Positions 1 through 44,565 of a DNA stretch of 59,331 bases are shown piece after piece; position 1 is the first letter of the stretch; every line of letters begins with the position of its first letter. Both the position numbers and the translations under genes were made by a program. The notes below the pieces were generated by a model. The model did not search any database, was not told the origin of the DNA, and worked only from the letters and a program-made list of their open reading frames with translations. Origin of the DNA: Phycisphaerales bacterium (lineage in GTDB: Bacteria; Planctomycetota; Phycisphaerae; Sedimentisphaerales; Anaerobacaceae); the NCBI GenBank assembly GCA_020352215.1, contig CP070675.1:1779890-1839220 (forward strand). The letters are read 5' to 3'.

Positions 1-822
1 CGCTCCAACCGGCAGCCCGATCAGCCGCAACAGATCCATCTTCCGGTTGAATCTTTGACGTTTGAGGGTGTTTATCCGCATTTGCTCGTTAAGCACGTTC
101 AGTTTAGCCGTCAGGACTTCCCACTTGACGCTTAGGTTGTTCGCATCCATCCTTTGCTGCTTTATCTCAGATTGCTTCTCGAACTGCGCAAGCAGATCCT
201 CACGTGTCACGATCTGTCGTTCCTTTAGCTTCACGAACAGAAATGCCCGCCTTACCTGAGAGAACACCCTGGCAACCTGATTCTCATAGTTGAATAGCGC
301 GTTGCGTTGCTCGTCGCGTAGGTCGACATCAATTGGGTTGTCTTTGCCGTACTCAAATATCCGCTGGCTGATCGTCGCGCTTACACTGCCCGCGTCGGCA
401 CCGCCGTTCGCGGATGCGAAGTCCCTGAAGTGCTCATATTGGCTGATTATCTCAATTGCAGGCAGGAACCGCGAATTGGCGACCAGTCTGCTGCCGCCAA
501 CTGCAATTATTTGCTCCCGTGCCTGCTTGATCTCGTTGCTGCTGAGAAATGCCAATTGCAGACACTCTTCAAGTGTCAGCGTCCGCTTGGCCTTCATCTG
601 TCGCGGCTCGACCGTTCTTGCCGGCAACTGCCCGACTGCCCTCCGAAATGTAAGACTATTGGGCTCGGAGGCCCTTATCTTAGTTTCCTCATCAAGGCGT
701 CGTTCAACCTGCTCTAACGGCGGCTCAAGCCTCTCGGCCGAGACCAGCTTCCGCGGCGTGTGAGCCAACAACGATAAGGCCGCAACAACCAGCACGAATC
801 TGTAAATTCTCTGCTTCAACAT
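1..822 (-). CDS. TolC-family outer membrane efflux protein, N-terminal part (cut by window edge)
   Basis: An open frame of 274 codons starts at ATG 822 and runs off the left edge without a stop. The N-terminus (MLKQRIYRFVLVVAALSLLA) is a signal peptide. About 80 residues in, the segment LTLEECLQLAFLSSNEIKQA matches the start of the outer-membrane efflux (OEP/TolC) repeat, and long heptad-rich helices follow, ending in MDLLRLIGLPVGA at the edge. Proteins of this family form the outer-membrane channel of tripartite exporters. The gene lies downstream of a sigma-54 promoter and next to a histidine kinase/NtrC regulator pair, which suggests dedicated control. The MacAB-like exporter at 22-26 kb has no channel gene beside it, but a link is only a guess. 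The Shine-Dalgarno sequence is weak. The family call is firm; the partner exporter is unknown. Confidence 0.9.
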   Translation of the reverse strand, partial: MLKQRIYRFVLVVAALSLLAHTPRKLVSAERLEPPLEQVERRLDEETKIRASEPNSLTFRRAVGQLPARTVEPRQMKAKRTLTLEECLQLAFLSSNEIKQAREQIIAVGGSRLVANSRFLPAIEIISQYEHFRDFASANGGADAGSVSATISQRIFEYGKDNPIDVDLRDEQRNALFNYENQVARVFSQVRRAFLFVKLKERQIVTREDLLAQFEKQSEIKQQRMDANNLSVKWEVLTAKLNVLNEQMRINTLKRQRFNRKMDLLRLIGLPVGA

Positions 823-1206
823 CGTTCAAAAACACCCGACTGAGTCTTCAAAGAAGCCTGTTCGTGTCAATAACAGCACATACGCCGCAATCAGATCCTG
901 GCCGACGGCGCTGCCATCTGGCCCCGACGGAGCCTACCCGATAACAAGAGAGCGTGCCCTTTCGAGCGGAGACGCCAGGAGCGGGCGTCGTCGCGCATTT
1001 GGTTGGGTCTGCGAATTCGAAAACGTCCCGATCCTCTCAGCGGTTGTGGCGTGATTAAGCGGGGGCTCTTAGGGGCACGCCGGGTCATGGCTCTGCGTTC
1101 TGGCTCCTCCACGGGAGTCTGTACTCTGTTGGCATACTTGCTCTGCTTCATCAAGCTGACCTGCTTGCATGAATAAGCTCGTCCGTTCGACATGAATTAT
1201 TATCAC
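823..1206 (-). other. Long leader between sigma-54 promoter and efflux gene
   Basis: If transcription starts about 12 bases after the promoter's TTGC element, roughly 374 untranslated bases precede the efflux ATG. Two overlapping open frames on the minus strand here are rich in Arg and Pro, have no recognisable domain and no good ribosome-binding site, so I do not call them genes. No clear riboswitch or terminator was recognised. Confidence 0.35.
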
Positions 1207-1221
1207 GCAAAGGGCGTGCCA
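1207..1221 (-). promoter_or_regulatory. Consensus sigma-54 (-24/-12) promoter
   Basis: On the minus strand the sequence reads TGGCACG-CCCT-TTGC, an exact match to the sigma-54 consensus TGGCACG-N4-TTGC. It points at the TolC-family gene that starts at 822 and lies 156 bases beyond the stop codon of the sigma-54 activator. The match and spacing are seen directly. Use by sigma-54 is inferred. Confidence 0.85.
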
Positions 1222-1321
1222 GGGAGTCCGCGAGCACCAATCATTGCCGTAAGTCGTTGTGGCAAAGGAAGATATGGGCGCACCTTTGTTTTGAAGCCGA
1301 AGCCGCGGGCTGGCTGGTTCC

Positions 1322-1359
1322 TGTGTCGCGCACGACACACCTGTGTCACGGCCGAAACA
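1322..1359 (-). promoter_or_regulatory. Two tandem palindromes, likely activator (enhancer) sites
   Basis: Site 1 (1322-1339) is TGTGTCGCGCACGACACA, with perfect 7-base arms around CGCA. Site 2 (1342-1359) is TGTGTCACGGCCGAAACA, the same arm pattern with one mismatch. The centres are 20 bp apart, about two helical turns on one DNA face, and about 135 and 155 bp upstream of the predicted start of the sigma-54 promoter. That is the usual place for dimer sites of NtrC-family activators. The activator gene ends 19 bases away, so it is the natural candidate to bind here. Confidence 0.7.
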
Positions 1360-1377: not shown

Positions 1378-2754
1378 CTATTTGATTCCGTACTGCTCAA
1401 ACTTCCTGTAGAGGGTTTTCCTGCCGATGCCGAGCAGTTCGGCGGCCTTTTCTCGATTACCACCGGTCTTTGCCAGGGCGTTTTGGATCGCCTCTCGCTC
1501 TGCCTGCTCGGTGGCCTTGCCTGCAATCTCGGCAAGCGAAGTGCCTGCTGCCTCCACCTTCGCTTCATCCGGCTCCTCTGAGCAGATCCGGCTGGGCAGA
1601 TCCGCCGGTTCAACAGAGCTACCGGCCGCGACGGTCATTGCACTGTAGATACAGTTTTGCAGCTCTCTGATGTTGCCGGGCCATTCGTAGGCGGTTAGCA
1701 ACTCCATCGCCCCGCCGGAGACTGCAGGATGTTCGACCCCCAAAGGCGTAGCAAACTTCTGTAGGAAGTATTCAACCAACAAGGGGATGTCTTCTTTACG
1801 CTGGCGAAGCGGACAGACATTCAGGCTCAGAACATTCAAGCGCCAATAGAGGTCTTCCCTGAATGTTCCTTGTTCAAGCATGATTGCCAAATCCCGATTG
1901 GTTGCTGCCATCACGCGGACGTCAACAGCAATCGGCTGGGTGCCGCCCACACGGTGAAAATTCCCTTCTTCGATTACCCGTAAGAGCTTGACCTGTGCCT
2001 CGAGCGGAAGCTCTCCGATTTCGTCGAGAAACAGTGTCCCTCCGTCGGCAGCTTCGAACTTACCCACTCGCAGTTGTTTCGCGTCTGTAAATGACCCTGC
2101 TTCGTGGCCGAAGAATTCACTTTCAATCAGATGAGCGGGAATCGCACCGCAATTGACCACGATGAAAGGACATGACTTGCGTTTGCTGGCTTGATGAATT
2201 GCCCGCACTATCAGCTCCTTGCCTGTACCGCTCTCCCCCCAAACCAGCACTGTACCGTCGGTAGCTGCGAACTTGTGCATAAGAGCAAATATCGATTTCA
2301 TCTTGTTCGATACGCCCACGATATTCTCAAACCCGTATGTCTGTTGAAGCTGATCTTCGAGCTGCTTGACCCTCCGCGTCAGTCGCACCATCTCTGTCGC
2401 ACGCGATATGATTGCGAGAAGCTCATCGTTGTCGAACGGTTTTTGTAAGTAGTCGAACGCCCCCTTCTTCATCGCCTCAACTGCCGACCGAACCTCACCG
2501 TGAGCGGTCATTATTATGATCTTGCTGTCGGCACTAAGTCGTTTGTCGAGTGCCTCCATCACCTCCATGCCGTCGATACCCGGCATTTTCAAATCCAGCA
2601 GAACGACCGACGGCATGAACTCCGCGTATGCGTCAAGTCCCGACTCGCCGCTGTCGGCGGCCTTAACCGCGTAGCCGTTCTTCTTCAGTAAGGCCGACAA
2701 AATCGAACGTATGCTCGCTTCGTCGTCGATGACTAACACCCGCGCTTTCTTCAC
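1378..2754 (-). CDS. Sigma-54-dependent response regulator (NtrC family)
   Basis: 458 residues, normal length for the family. The receiver domain covers about 4-118, with acidic residues D10/D11 and phosphoacceptor D54 in LLDLKMPG. The AAA+ domain covers about 143-375, with Walker A GESGTGKE (173-180) and Walker B LFLDEIGE around D244. A Fis-type helix-turn-helix is at about 420-458. The sigma-54-contacting loop reads GSFTDA (220-225) instead of the usual GAFTGA. The kinase gene lies 31 bases upstream on the same strand, so the two form an operon. Phosphorylation by that kinase should let this protein activate the sigma-54 promoter just beyond its stop codon. The layout resembles AtoSC/ZraSR/PrsKR-type pairs, but which family it belongs to is not resolved. 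Confidence 0.95.
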
Positions 2755-2785: not shown

Positions 2786-4030
2786 CTACTTCACGGGCAG
2801 CGAGATTCTCACTCCGGCACCTCCGTTTTCGGCCTTGTCTATCCATATCTCCCCATTGTACTGCTTGACAATACTGCTGCAAATTGCCAAGCCGAGTCCT
2901 GTCCCGCCTGGCTTGGTTGTGAAGAAAGGCTCAAACACCTTCTGACGCAGTTCCGGTGCTATTCCATCCCCCGCATCCTCCACCTCTATCAACATCCTTC
3001 TGCTGTCCGGACCGGAACCCCGTCCGGCTTCCACGGCCAGACCGGCCCTAATAAGCAGCGTCCCACCTTCCGGCATTGCCTGCAGACCGTTCATAAGCAC
3101 ATTCACAAGCAGTTGACGCAGCTGCACCAGGTCAAATGTGAGCCTCGGCAGATCACTGTCGAAATCCGTTTCCAACCTGACGTTTTGACTCTTCGCCTTA
3201 GCCTCGATCAAGCCCAGACAGCGTTTGATCTGCTCAGCAACGTCGATCTCTTCCGTATTGCTCTCAGCAGGTTGAGCCAGTGACAGCAAGTTGCCGACAA
3301 TGTTGTTTAGTCGATCCACCTCGTCCAACGTGTCGTCAGCAAGTTTCCTCTGGTCTGTCCCTTCGTCGAACTCACTCGCAAGGTACTGCACAGTGCTGCG
3401 AATCGCCGTCAGCGGATTGCGAAGCTCGTGGGCGATACCCGCCGCAAATTGGCCCATCGTTGCGAGCTGCTCAGCCCGAAACATCCGTTCGTTCTGCCGC
3501 AGGCGCTCCTTAAAAAGAAGGGCGTTCTCAAACGCCAGACCAGCCTGTCGGCTGAGCACCTGCAAATTTGCCAACTGCACCTTGTTCAACGGCCCTTCGA
3601 GCAGATGCACAAATACTATCCCGATCAATCTATCCATGGAGATCAAGGGCAAAGCCAGATTCACCGATGAGCCCGAAAACGGCTGAAGGTCAGACTCCAA
3701 GTACCTCGTGACCTCTTTGTTGTCCTCGAAGAACAAGATTTGGCGATTGGTGCGAAACCACTGAGCTATCCTGCCGTCAATCGGCAGCTCCGGCAGCTTA
3801 TAAGCCTCCCGGCTCACCTTATCAACAGCAAGAAAAGTGCGTGCCGATTCGCTACGGTCCGCAAGGTACACAAACGCCTTCTCAACACTCGTCAGCTCCC
3901 GAAGCTTGCTCAGCAAGTTGTTAGTCAGTTGCTCCGGGTCGACGATGAGCATCAAGGTGTCTTCGAATTCGGCCAGCGAGCTGTCGCTCTCCATCGGCTT
4001 GCCAAAGATGTGGCGAATCTTCTCGAACAT
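2786..4030 (-). CDS. Soluble GAF-domain sensor histidine kinase
   Basis: 414 residues with no membrane segment, so it is a cytoplasmic sensor. A GAF-like domain spans about 25-175. The dimerisation/phosphoacceptor segment follows, with H201 in AGIAHELRNPLTAI. The HATPase domain has an N-box around 310-320, DAGDGI at 352-357 and GGTGLGLAI at 375-383. It should autophosphorylate and pass phosphate to the adjacent NtrC-type regulator. The signal is unknown; GAF domains often bind small ligands. The start has an AAGGGAG ribosome-binding site and a strong sigma-70-type promoter 57-84 bases upstream. PrsK kinases of PEP-CTERM systems share the GAF-HisKA-HATPase order but have membrane segments, which this one lacks. 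Confidence 0.95.
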   Translation of the reverse strand: MFEKIRHIFGKPMESDSSLAEFEDTLMLIVDPEQLTNNLLSKLRELTSVEKAFVYLADRSESARTFLAVDKVSREAYKLPELPIDGRIAQWFRTNRQILFFEDNKEVTRYLESDLQPFSGSSVNLALPLISMDRLIGIVFVHLLEGPLNKVQLANLQVLSRQAGLAFENALLFKERLRQNERMFRAEQLATMGQFAAGIAHELRNPLTAIRSTVQYLASEFDEGTDQRKLADDTLDEVDRLNNIVGNLLSLAQPAESNTEEIDVAEQIKRCLGLIEAKAKSQNVRLETDFDSDLPRLTFDLVQLRQLLVNVLMNGLQAMPEGGTLLIRAGLAVEAGRGSGPDSRRMLIEVEDAGDGIAPELRQKVFEPFFTTKPGGTGLGLAICSSIVKQYNGEIWIDKAENGGAGVRISLPVK

Positions 4031-4086: not shown

Positions 4087-4114
4087 ATTATACTCCCAGG
4101 GCGAATGCGGTCAA
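4087..4114 (-). promoter_or_regulatory. Sigma-70-type promoter for the kinase/regulator operon
   Basis: The minus strand reads TTGACC, a 16-base spacer, then TATAAT. The predicted start is near 4080, about 50 bases before the kinase ATG. One mismatch in the -35 box and none in the -10 box. Confidence 0.7.
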
Positions 4115-40518: not shown

Positions 40519-43500
40519 CTACGGCGCGGGCCACAACAGCTCATCGAGCCACGTATCGCCTAAAGCCGCAATGTCGAATAAGTCAACGGCACCGTCCGCA
40601 TTCAAGTCGAACGCCTGGCTGAAGGGCGCGGTTCTGCCTGCAAGCCAGGCAACCTCAGGCCCGGACAGAGCACGGTTGAGGATGCGGAACTCATCGAGCA
40701 GACCCATGTAATACGCGTCAGCCACGTACTGCGACCTGCCAAGCCAGTTGTTTGTAGTCGGGCCAAGATCGCTTGGGTTGAGCGTCGCTTCAGTATTCTG
40801 AGCGACGGCCAAGCCGTCCTGATACAACGTGATCGTATCGTTGTCGGCGTCGATCGTCACGGCGACATGGTGCCACCCGCTGGGCAGGGTGGTCGGTGCG
40901 GTCACCAGTTGTTCTGGGGCCCCGCCGCCCTCGATCGTAATGCCGAATCTCATCTGGCCGTTTGTCCCCAGGCGCGGCGTAAGGAACATGTAGGCCGTGG
41001 TGTCGTTGCCGAAATCGAAGATGCGCTGCCAGGCGCCACCGGCATTCGAGAAGTTCGCCCACGTTGCAATGGTGCAGTTCGTAAGCGAGCCGATGAGCGA
41101 ACCGATCGGCAACTCTACATAATCGTCGGCGCCGTCGCACCTGATCGCCTGGCCCAGGTAACCGGTCCCATAAGTCGGGAGACCGCCTGGCGTGCCGTGT
41201 TGCCCGCCGACGCTGTCGTTGGCGTTGCCATCAAGGGCGTAGTGTGCCACCACAGCTGACGTTCCGGGATCAACTGGTGTGACCAAATGACCGCTCGTGA
41301 GCCACTCGTTCGCGACAATCTCGAGGTCGAGATAGTCAACCACGCAGTCGTCGTTTAGATCGTTGACGGGCTTCAGCTGTGATGCGACGCACCTGGGCCC
41401 ATAGAGCCTGATATCATCGATAAACAGGTTGCCCGTGGGACCGGGCACAGGACTGAGCCTGTTGCCGACGCCAAGGTAGATCTTATTTACAGACGTAAGA
41501 CTTACAGGCGTGAACCTGCTAAGTTCAATATTAATCTCTTGCCAGTTGCCTGTCGTCACCTTACTGGTATCCGTATCGGGGACATCTACACGGGTACCCG
41601 TGCTGTCTTGGAGTCCCACGTACAGCGTGGCAGGGACGTTACACGGATCACCGTAGACCCACAGCGACATAGACGTGACACCCCTGCGGGAGAAGTCCTG
41701 CGGCACGGGCCATTCGCGTTCGGCCTCTGAATAGCGGGCTTTGCCGCCCGTACCTGTATTGTCGTAGCCGAGCGGCATGGACTGGCCGCCACCATGGACG
41801 ATGGTTTGCTCGGCGAACGGCGCGTTGAGGTACCCTACGGTCGAACCGGTGCCGTTGCCTGTCTTGCCCGGCGGCGGTTCAGTGTAGCCGTATCCATCTA
41901 TCCACGTCTGGAATATCCGGTCGGGTGAGTAGTCGTTGTAGTCCTCGAAGTCATCGATCACGATGTAATCGGCCGTCGTAAAGCTCCAGAGCCTACCCGG
42001 CGTGATGGTCGCATCGTTGTTGACCTCATCCACCCGCATATGGTAGGTCTGGCCCCACACAAGGGGTGACTCAGTGGGAAGGTAGCTGGTTGTACCCAGT
42101 CGGCCTCGATATATCAGGGGAGTCGTGGTATCAGCGGCGGCTACGGCATCCGCGTCGGTGCCGAAGTACATATCGTGCTGAACGGCCTTGACTCCGGCCT
42201 GCCACGAAACAACAACAGTGTCCGGCACACCAGTAGCACCGTCACCGGGCGATGGGGCATAGGCCCTCTCCGGCAGGTAAGGCGTCGGGCCGACGTACTC
42301 GGCACTGATCACCTCCCTAACCGGGATGCCCGGACCTTGCCAAGCGGCCGCCACGTTGTCGCCGCCACTCCCTTCCTTCATGATCGCCTCGATGTAGTAC
42401 CTCTTACCGGCCTCCAGCGCAATAGCAGCGGACCTCTGGATTGCCCCACCGCCGGTGCCACCACCGGTGCCGTCGAAATCACGTGAAGGCACCCAACCCG
42501 TGACTTCGCAAATCATCACCGCGTTGGCCGGGTCCTCATCGGTGCTCAGCCACAACTGGGTCTGGTTGTCGCCGGCAACCCAGAACGTGAAATCACCTGA
42601 AGCCGGTGGGAACAACCAGCCGCTAAGTCGGCTACCGTAGCTGTCCGTCCAGTCTACGGGCCCCTCGAAGAGGTCCACCCACTCCCACCCATCCGGATTG
42701 TCGGGGTAGTTCACACTGCCCGTCAGGCCACTCAGGGCGTCGCCACCGATACCGAGCCACCACTGACGCAGTATCCTGCCCGGGCCGGCCGCTACGGTCT
42801 CAAAGCTCCACAGATCACCTTCTCGTTCGGTCCCGTCGGTCTCGACTTCATTGACCCGGAAGTAATAGACCGTCTCTGCACTAAGCAGGCCCGGATCATA
42901 GGTAGTCTCTTCCAGGATACCCTTGTCGGTATCGCCGGCACCGTCGGCCACTTCGGCCTGGTCGGTGCCGAAGAACAGGTGGTGCTTGAGCGCTGCCATA
43001 TCAGACTTACCGGCACTCCAACTGAGCTTGGCAGTTATCATCACTTCCGTAGCGCCGTCGGCCGGGTTAGGATTCCACGCGGTCAAAGGTGTAGCGGTAA
43101 AACTCCACACATCGCCGGTAACCACGCTCCCGTCGCCCTGGACCTCATCGATCCGCCAATAATACGTCGTCCCAGGGTCAAGACCGGCAGCGTGCCAGTA
43201 CACTGTCCAGCCCTGCGGGCCTATGAAGATCAGGTTGTCGGGATCGGTGCCGAAATACACGTTGTGGGAAACTGCCCCATCTCCGGGCTCCCACTGAAGC
43301 AGCGGCGTGTCCACACCTATGGCACCATCGGGCGGGCTCGGCTCCTCGGCCTTTACGAAGGCCGGGGGTATTCCGTTATACAGGCCCCGGACATGCTCTG
43401 CGGTCAGCGTCCGGTCGTACATCCGTACGTCGTCAATAAGCCCAGTGTAGTAACGCGAATCGAGGGTATTGCCGCCGATATGTATTACGCTCTGCGCGTT

Positions 43501-44064
43501 TAGAGGCGAACTATTCGCGTGATCAACGTCCGCCTCAAATTCACCGTCCATATATATCGTTAGTTTCTGGTTCTTCGCACTTCGGACCGCGACGACGTGC
43601 ACCCAGTTACCTGTCACAATATCGGTGTCTGAGTTTACCGACGTGTCTGGATTGCCGGCAAAGAATGAGAGCTTCGTCCCCAAGACTGCCACTATGAAGT
43701 CATTTGCTACGCCCCCGACATCAGACCACAGCACACCACTGCCTTGGTACGCGTGGCCCCCAAGCTCAAGGCCGGGCGTATCTGTTTTGATCCAGGCCGT
43801 CAGTGCGAAATCATCCTGGACGACCCGTGGGACCTCCACGTAGTCGTCGGTACCGTCGAACTCCAAAGCCCCGTCTATACTCCCGACTACCCACTGTGGG
43901 CCGCCGTACAGTGTGCCGTCGTTTCCCGCGGTCGAGGAATCGATGGCGGTAGTGCCAGCACCGTCATCGAAGGTCCAGTGCCCCACCAGACCGGCCGACG
44001 CGCTGCCGGCCAAAACCAGCACTAAGACAACGCAAATTGCATAGCCACGCCACTCTTTATACAT
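40519..44064 (-). CDS. Large secreted LamG / PA14 / fibronectin-like protein
   Basis: 1181 residues from ATG 44064; the product then starts with a signal peptide (YAICVVLVLVLAGSASA). Order: LamG (about 26-215; LVGHWTFDDGAGTTAIDSST, YYTGLIDDVRMYDR); two fibronectin-like segments, each with a TYYWRIDEV- or VYYFRVNEV-type motif; PA14 (about 410-560; FEGPVDWTDSYGSRLSGWLF); another fibronectin-like segment; a DDFEDYND carbohydrate-binding-like domain (about 660-840); a dockerin-like linker; a second LamG (about 885-1120); a final dockerin-like repeat ending WLDELLWPAP. It probably binds carbohydrate at the cell surface or in the matrix. The C-terminal half is paralogous to the TAG-split gene at 9658-12894, and the 3' flanks are also alike. 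Confidence 0.9.
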   Translation of the reverse strand: MYKEWRGYAICVVLVLVLAGSASAGLVGHWTFDDGAGTTAIDSSTAGNDGTLYGGPQWVVGSIDGALEFDGTDDYVEVPRVVQDDFALTAWIKTDTPGLELGGHAYQGSGVLWSDVGGVANDFIVAVLGTKLSFFAGNPDTSVNSDTDIVTGNWVHVVAVRSAKNQKLTIYMDGEFEADVDHANSSPLNAQSVIHIGGNTLDSRYYTGLIDDVRMYDRTLTAEHVRGLYNGIPPAFVKAEEPSPPDGAIGVDTPLLQWEPGDGAVSHNVYFGTDPDNLIFIGPQGWTVYWHAAGLDPGTTYYWRIDEVQGDGSVVTGDVWSFTATPLTAWNPNPADGATEVMITAKLSWSAGKSDMAALKHHLFFGTDQAEVADGAGDTDKGILEETTYDPGLLSAETVYYFRVNEVETDGTEREGDLWSFETVAAGPGRILRQWWLGIGGDALSGLTGSVNYPDNPDGWEWVDLFEGPVDWTDSYGSRLSGWLFPPASGDFTFWVAGDNQTQLWLSTDEDPANAVMICEVTGWVPSRDFDGTGGGTGGGAIQRSAAIALEAGKRYYIEAIMKEGSGGDNVAAAWQGPGIPVREVISAEYVGPTPYLPERAYAPSPGDGATGVPDTVVVSWQAGVKAVQHDMYFGTDADAVAAADTTTPLIYRGRLGTTSYLPTESPLVWGQTYHMRVDEVNNDATITPGRLWSFTTADYIVIDDFEDYNDYSPDRIFQTWIDGYGYTEPPPGKTGNGTGSTVGYLNAPFAEQTIVHGGGQSMPLGYDNTGTGGKARYSEAEREWPVPQDFSRRGVTSMSLWVYGDPCNVPATLYVGLQDSTGTRVDVPDTDTSKVTTGNWQEINIELSRFTPVSLTSVNKIYLGVGNRLSPVPGPTGNLFIDDIRLYGPRCVASQLKPVNDLNDDCVVDYLDLEIVANEWLTSGHLVTPVDPGTSAVVAHYALDGNANDSVGGQHGTPGGLPTYGTGYLGQAIRCDGADDYVELPIGSLIGSLTNCTIATWANFSNAGGAWQRIFDFGNDTTAYMFLTPRLGTNGQMRFGITIEGGGAPEQLVTAPTTLPSGWHHVAVTIDADNDTITLYQDGLAVAQNTEATLNPSDLGPTTNNWLGRSQYVADAYYMGLLDEFRILNRALSGPEVAWLAGRTAPFSQAFDLNADGAVDLFDIAALGDTWLDELLWPAP

Positions 44065-44565
44065 GACAGTTCTCCCTAAGAAAGTTAGAACTACCGCGCT
44101 TTGGCCACACGCCAGAGCGCCTCTTCTCACCCTCAACGGCTCTGCTCACCTGTGCCTTCAGCAGAGCCTGTCTCGGACGATTAAGCATAGACATTGAATA
44201 GGGCTCTCTCCCTAGCCGCTTGTGCCCGCGGGGCACCACACAACGGTGCTGTGCACCAACATCGGTCCGGTTCCGATTCCACCTCCTTCCTGAGAGAACC
44301 CAACACAGGCTGTCAATTGATAGACAGGAGCTGCCGTTGGCAAACGCCCCACACCATTCGCGTGCGCACCATCGACCTGCGTCCTCCTCCCTTTTCAGAA
44401 ACCGCCAAAAACTTGCCTGTAGAAGACGAAAATTCCCAGGCCTCAATCGTATATATTTGTACCAGATAAGCCCCCCATTTATCAAGGAATAAATGGGCAA
44501 ATTGCGTGGGATGAGGCACAATTCACGTGCGCCAGATTATGGGAAATCCACCGGTCGAAACCCAT
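44065..44565. other. Gene-free stretch upstream of the LamG/PA14 gene
   Basis: CCCATTTAT (44474-44482) and ATAAATGGG (44489-44497) form a perfect 9-bp stem with a 6-base loop, about 70 bases past the dehydrogenase stop. It may be a terminator, although no T run follows. Otherwise nothing was recognised. Confidence 0.4.

What the first reader, a model, noticed from the sequence alone, without database searches (positions are those of the whole stretch)
1207..1359. Self-contained sigma-54 module: kinase, activator, tandem enhancer sites and perfect promoter before an efflux-channel gene
The minus strand carries TGGCACG-N4-TTGC exactly. Two 18-bp palindromes of the TGTGTC...GACACA type lie 20 bp apart, about 135 and 155 bp upstream of the predicted start, immediately after the stop codon of an NtrC-type activator. 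The order kinase, activator, enhancers, promoter, TolC-family gene suggests a complete dedicated circuit. The roughly 374-base leader before the target gene is unexplained.
Basis: partly seen in the sequence, partly recalled or inferred. Interest (0 to 1): 0.7.

Follow-up and report, generated by a model that had tools for sequence, protein, structure and literature searches.

The report
Dedicated sigma-54 switch for exporter operon
A planctomycete carries a sensor, an activator, two activator-binding sites and a sigma-54 promoter in a row; relatives show this is a real, conserved switch for one large membrane-export operon, an ordinary kind of bacterial circuit in a clade where it had not been described in the papers searched.

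Summary
The minus strand has TGGCACG-N4-TTGC (1221-1207), one perfect TGTGTC-N6-GACACA (1322-1339) and a second with one mismatch (1342-1359), 20 bp apart, just after the activator's stop codon. Comparison makes the case. Six orthologous activators (76-80% identical) from Planctomycetota MAGs all have 2-3 such sites 20-21 bp apart, the promoter-proximal one centred 108-110 bp before the -24 GG. Exact tandem pairs occur in only 6 of 89 family genomes, always at this locus, never in the reversed-pattern control. rpoN is present; a sigma-70 promoter before the kinase is conserved. Relatives keep this gene set in other orders behind the same front end. A more distant relative also has a copy of enhancers and promoter before an amidohydrolase gene. 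The 374-nt leader is not conserved, structured or coding. Verdict: a genuine, single-target sigma-54 two-component circuit of ordinary architecture; new member of a known kind.

The parts
4087..4114 (-). predicted sigma-70 promoter TTGACC-16-TATAAT for the kinase-activator operon
   Evidence: 11 of 12 consensus; a promoter of the same type 82-93 bp before the kinase start in six orthologous loci, 9-11 of 12
2786..4030 (-). sensor histidine kinase: GAF, HisKA, HATPase_c
   Evidence: Pfam; 67-72% identical orthologues directly before the activator in relatives
1378..2754 (-). NtrC-type response regulator / sigma-54 activator: receiver, AAA+ with GSFTDA in place of GAFTGA, Fis-type HTH
   Evidence: Pfam; alignment A3; closest solved structures are NtrC-family regulators
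1342..1359 (-). distal activator-binding site TGTTTCGGCCGTGACACA (one mismatch to the palindrome)
   Evidence: conserved position in six orthologues
1322..1339 (-). proximal activator-binding site TGTGTCGTGCGCGACACA (perfect palindrome)
   Evidence: centre 108-111 bp from the -24 GG in all loci compared
1207..1221 (-). sigma-54 promoter (-24/-12) TGGCACGCCCTTTGC
   Evidence: conserved in all orthologous loci
823..1196 (-). untranslated leader from the predicted start (about 1196) to the OEP start codon
   Evidence: no Rfam match, no homologue in 99 genomes beyond about 30-bp chance matches, folding z -0.36, the 100-aa ORF 1193-891 has non-coding codon usage; leaders in L013, L014 and L017 are about 60-115 nt
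1..822 (-). first 274 aa of a TolC/OEP-family outer membrane protein, first gene of the target operon; cut by an assembly gap
   Evidence: PF02321; 61% identical to L014 OEP, whose last 78 residues match G000:C1:2365363-2365596

Best explanation
This is a cis-dedicated sigma-54 two-component circuit. A GAF-domain histidine kinase and its NtrC-type response regulator are made from a sigma-70 promoter. When the kinase phosphorylates the regulator (inferred; Asp54 and the kinase H-box are present), the regulator assembles on two in-phase palindromes (20 bp, two helical turns) that start right after its own gene, loops to the sigma-54 polymerase waiting at the -24/-12 promoter about 110 bp downstream, and opens it by ATP hydrolysis. 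This switches on one operon coding for an envelope-spanning exporter: OEP outer-membrane channel, an adaptor-like protein with an alpha-hairpin and NEW3 domain, a LamG-domain extracytoplasmic protein, several ABC-2 permeases and an ATPase. Shown: the genes, sites, promoter, their conservation, fixed geometry and uniqueness in the genomes scanned, and the operon gene set. Inferred: binding, phosphorylation, looping, transcription start, tripartite assembly. Unknown: the signal and the exported substrate.
For: Sites and promoter present. Six orthologous loci keep activator, tandem sites (20-21 bp) and promoter with the proximal centre 108-110 bp from the -24 GG; L017 has a third site at the same 21-bp period. 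Exact tandem pairs in 6 of 89 family genomes, every one at this locus, 0 in reversed-pattern controls. Recognition-helix segment [10 protein letters not shown] identical in all orthologues with a C-terminus. A diverged orthologue (64-69%) in G044 has the same half-sites 30 bp apart, the promoter and the OEP gene. rpoN present. Operon recovered from G000:C1:2346600-2366599 and matched in relatives. Adaptor hairpin: RND_mfp match at residues 49-116 and a helical pair at pLDDT about 85-89. Conserved sigma-70 promoter before the kinase.
Against: No expression or binding data. The GAFTGA loop reads GSFTDA (GTFTDA in the diverged group), a variant whose sigma-54 contact is not tested here. The distal site has one mismatch. 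Joining the two halves of the OEP gene across assembly gaps is inference from homology; residues matching L014 280-444 are missing from both pieces. Exporter function is by domain content only.
Confidence: 0.86

Rival explanations
1. The palindromes are RNA hairpins (terminator or mRNA end of the activator gene), and the operon is read through or driven otherwise.
For: They are inverted repeats a few bases after a stop codon.
Against: No T-run follows and the terminator scan does not report them. Two to three copies at a 20-21 bp period and a fixed distance to the promoter are a DNA-site signature. A copy with the promoter stands before an unrelated gene in G044 at a separate place.
Confidence: 0.04
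2. The regulator has a wider regulon, and this operon is one of several targets.
For: G044 has two sets of sites: OEP operon and an amidohydrolase. Single, non-tandem sites with one mismatch occur elsewhere in G000.
Against: Tandem pairs with up to 1 mismatch are unique to the module in G000, G007, G027 and G054; single sites in G000 (12 places, two of them here) compare with 5 for the reversed-pattern control.
Confidence: 0.15
3. The sites bind a different NtrC-type regulator of the genome, not the neighbouring one.
For: The genome has at least six other related activators at 40-46% identity.
Against: The tandem sites occur only in genomes with this orthologue, next to its gene.
Confidence: 0.04

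Closest known systems
Single-target sigma-54 activators next to their operon (Clostridiales survey, PMC6615313; Desulfovibrio response-regulator map, PMC3333781)
   Same: In Clostridiales 65% of activators control one operon, mostly co-located, usually with several UAS sites, mostly 100-250 bp upstream; fifteen groups use TGT-N10-12-ACA. Palindromes of 4-6-bp repeats with 3-8-bp spacers are usual in Desulfovibrio. Here: TGT-N12-ACA, 6-bp repeats, 6-bp spacer, about 110/130 bp.
   Different: Different phylum, different target (OEP/LamG/ABC-2 operon), and the operon's gene order is reshuffled behind a constant front end.
AtoC, ZraR, NtrC and PrsR two-component activators
   Same: Receiver, AAA+, Fis HTH; best NCBIfam scores are to AtoC and NtrC; kinase closest to AtoS/ZraS.
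   Different: Below every curated cut-off: AtoC 492 of 714, NtrC 461 of 558.6, PrsR 421 of 502.6, ZraR 377 of 760.
QseF/GlrR with TGTC-N10-GACA sites (motif string found in PMC8745638)
   Same: Sigma-54 response regulator with short palindromic sites before a sigma-54 promoter.
   Different: Spacing between TGTC and GACA is 6, not 10; GlrR model score 335 of 763.
TolC-dependent ABC exporters with a periplasmic adaptor (from my own knowledge: MacAB, YbhFSR-YbhG)
   Same: OEP channel, protein with adaptor-like alpha-hairpin, ABC permeases and ATPase in one operon.
   Different: Three or more ABC-2/DUF3526 permeases, a NEW3 domain in the adaptor-like protein, and LamG proteins in the same operon.

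Membership tests
NtrC-family (receiver-AAA+-Fis) sigma-54 activator | receiver domain with phospho-acceptor Asp | tested here: met
   PF00072 E 7e-31; D10, D11, D54, T83, K105 invariant
NtrC-family (receiver-AAA+-Fis) sigma-54 activator | sigma-54 interaction AAA+ domain with Walker A and GAFTGA loop | tested here: met
   PF00158 E 5e-69; GESGTGKE present; loop is GSFTDA, keeping F and T, in the six closest orthologues
NtrC-family (receiver-AAA+-Fis) sigma-54 activator | Fis-type HTH | tested here: met
   PF02954 E 9e-16
sigma-54 dependent promoter | GG/GC at -24/-12 with consensus TGGCACG-N4-TTGC and conservation in orthologues | tested here: met
sigma-54 dependent promoter | rpoN in the genome | tested here: met
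   PF04552 E 1.9e-57
sigma-54 dependent promoter | rpoN-dependent transcript starting near 1196 | not testable with these tools
   needs 5'-end mapping
AtoC / NtrC / ZraR / PrsR / GlrR equivalogs | score above NCBIfam equivalog cut-off | tested here: not met
   all below cut-off
TolC/OEP family | PF02321 outer membrane efflux protein above gathering score | tested here: met
   51 bits against 22 for the fragment; full-length orthologues 100-109 bits
tripartite ABC exporter | channel, adaptor and ABC transporter encoded together | tested here: inconclusive
   OEP, ABC-2 permeases and ABC_tran clear; adaptor by weak RND_mfp match and a predicted hairpin only; assembly not testable

The most novel reading that the evidence does not exclude
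Kinase, activator, enhancers and promoter form a fixed front end behind which the genes of a clade-specific OEP/LamG/multi-ABC-2 envelope machine are reshuffled, and whose enhancer-promoter unit can be copied to recruit a new gene (the amidohydrolase in G044). This would be an undescribed surface-assembly or export system of Phycisphaerae-related Planctomycetota.
Probability: 0.35. Interest if true: 0.5.

Novelty: new member of a known kind. Interest (0 to 1): 0.33.

Why it matters
It gives a comparative, statistically clean activator-site-promoter pairing in a planctomycete lineage met here mainly as MAGs, and ties a sigma-54 switch to one envelope-export operon, in line with the proposal that sigma-54 mainly controls the bacterial exterior (PMC3162934). 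The regulator-site pair and the constant front end with a reshuffled operon offer a test case for how activator-promoter pairs acquire targets.

Tried and rejected
Riboswitch or other RNA in the 374-nt leader: no Rfam match at E up to 1, folding z -0.36, rejected. Leader as a repeat or conserved element: only about 30-bp matches in 99 genomes; three of the four inspected (L146, L148, L149) share one coding-like context, taken as chance. The 100-aa ORF 1193-891 as a leader peptide or gene: codon score -0.04 against at least 0.11 for 100-codon pieces of real genes, no Pfam hit, rejected. OEP start further upstream: an in-frame TGA lies two codons before the ATG. Palindromes as terminators: see rivals. 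Autoregulation through the same sites before the kinase: no further site with up to 1 mismatch in the window. Structure models of the NEW3 protein and of the 425-aa protein were poor (mean pLDDT 39 and 36), so no fold search was made; only the hairpin of the first is used. Paper searches for this gene set with sigma-54 found nothing.

Full report
Observation. The minus strand carries TGGCACGCCCTTTGC at 1221-1207. TGTGTC-N6-GACACA is exact at 1322-1339 and has one mismatch at 1342-1359. The activator at 1378-2754 and the kinase at 2786-4030 are confirmed by Pfam, as is the OEP fragment at 1-822. The genome (6.2 Mb, one scaffold) has 7 exact promoter matches and 12 palindromes with up to 1 mismatch, two of which are the pair described. 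rpoN is present.

Conservation. The closest relatives of the activator are in MAGs named Sedimentisphaerales, Phycisphaerales, Phycisphaerae or Planctomycetota. Six of them (L013-L018, 76-80% identity) have, right after the activator stop, two sites (three in L017) of consensus TGTGTCAT-NN-ATGACACA spaced 20-21 bp, and a promoter of the TGGCAC-N5-TTGC type (TGGTATG in L016), with the proximal centre 108-110 bp before the -24 GG in each. L017's extra site keeps the 21-bp period. An exact tandem pattern finds 6 of 89 family genomes, each only at this locus, with no reversed-pattern control hits; genomes reached through L014, L015 and L017 give the same loci. The window's own pair is not among those six because its distal site has one mismatch. 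With up to 3 mismatches, extra pairs occur at about control rates. A scan of 397 genomes of the class at E below 1e-130 finds the activator only in G000 and G044, so the module is narrow in range.

Diverged members. In G044 the activator (69%) ends at a contig end (C9); contig C139 begins with an activator C-terminus nearly identical to that of the sister locus L019, followed by two sites 30 bp apart, TGGCACGGCGCTTGC and a 516-aa OEP orthologue. That C9 and C139 are neighbours is inference from this match. Elsewhere in G044 (C195) a closely similar copy of the enhancer-promoter stretch stands before an Amidohydro_2 gene. This looks like a duplicated promoter recruiting a second target (inference).

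Target operon. Window base 1 lies directly after a 100-N run (L123 14791-14890). The 3' end of the OEP gene was found with the L014 orthologue at C1:2365363-2365596, also next to a 100-N run. Following it on the same strand are a NEW3-domain protein (537 aa), a 425-aa protein, a LamG protein (730 aa), two ABC-2 permeases, an ABC ATPase and a third ABC-2 permease up to the next gap. Relatives hold the same genes in other orders: L167 has ABC-2 x4, OEP, NEW3, ABC-2 x2, ATPase; L128/L152 a 425/LamG/ABC-2 fusion, ABC-2, OEP, NEW3, small protein, ABC-2 x2, ATPase (93% identical to ours); L014/L168 OEP, NEW3, small protein, ABC-2 x2; L013 and L016 start with LamG proteins. The NEW3 protein matches periplasmic adaptors over residues 49-116, and the model shows a helical hairpin there, so a channel-adaptor-ABC assembly is likely but unproven.

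Mechanism. Kinase and activator have a sigma-70 promoter of their own, TTGACC-16-TATAAT, of a type conserved in the six orthologues. The kinase carries a GAF sensor domain and I saw no obvious membrane segment in its sequence, so I infer a cytoplasmic signal. Shown: parts, conservation and geometry. Inferred: phosphorylation, binding, looping, transcription start near 1196.

Leader. The 374-nt leader is longer than those of relatives (about 60-115 nt from the predicted start to the candidate start codons in L013, L014 and L017). It has no Rfam match, no homologue, no unusual folding and no coding signal. Most likely it is unconserved sequence; no function is claimed.

Known context. Single-operon activators next to their targets with several UAS sites mostly 100-250 bp upstream are the rule in Clostridiales, and TGT-N10-12-ACA is the largest UAS type there. 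Similar palindromes were validated in Desulfovibrio. The architecture is therefore ordinary; the members, sites and target are new to the sources searched.

Noticed in passing
G000:C1, 100-N runs at L123:14791-14890 and in L127 (1024, 3430, 6404, 8428, 18997): The one-contig genome is a chain of contigs joined by 100-N placeholders; one OEP gene is split over two places 585 kb apart, so gene order across gaps cannot be trusted.
   Followed up: yes
window:4609-8862 (-): 1417-aa protein with CHAT domain, AAA_16 ATPase and many near-identical TPR repeats upstream of the kinase, ending before a terminator-like site at 4540-4526.
   Followed up: no
alignment of L013-L018, L150 and window, between the proximal enhancer and the -24 element: A weakly conserved stretch (CTATCT ... 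CTTA) lies midway between enhancers and promoter; possibly a bend-protein site, unexplained.
   Followed up: partly
L151 (G044:C195:5700-9700): Closely similar copy of the enhancer-promoter region before an Amidohydro_2 gene.
   Followed up: partly
L017:1832-4314: Two further ABC-2 permease genes lie upstream of the kinase in this relative, so permease genes flank the regulatory pair on both sides.
   Followed up: no
window:9658-11460 (-) and 40519-44136 (-): Further LamG-domain proteins in the window, not adjacent to the operon.
   Followed up: no
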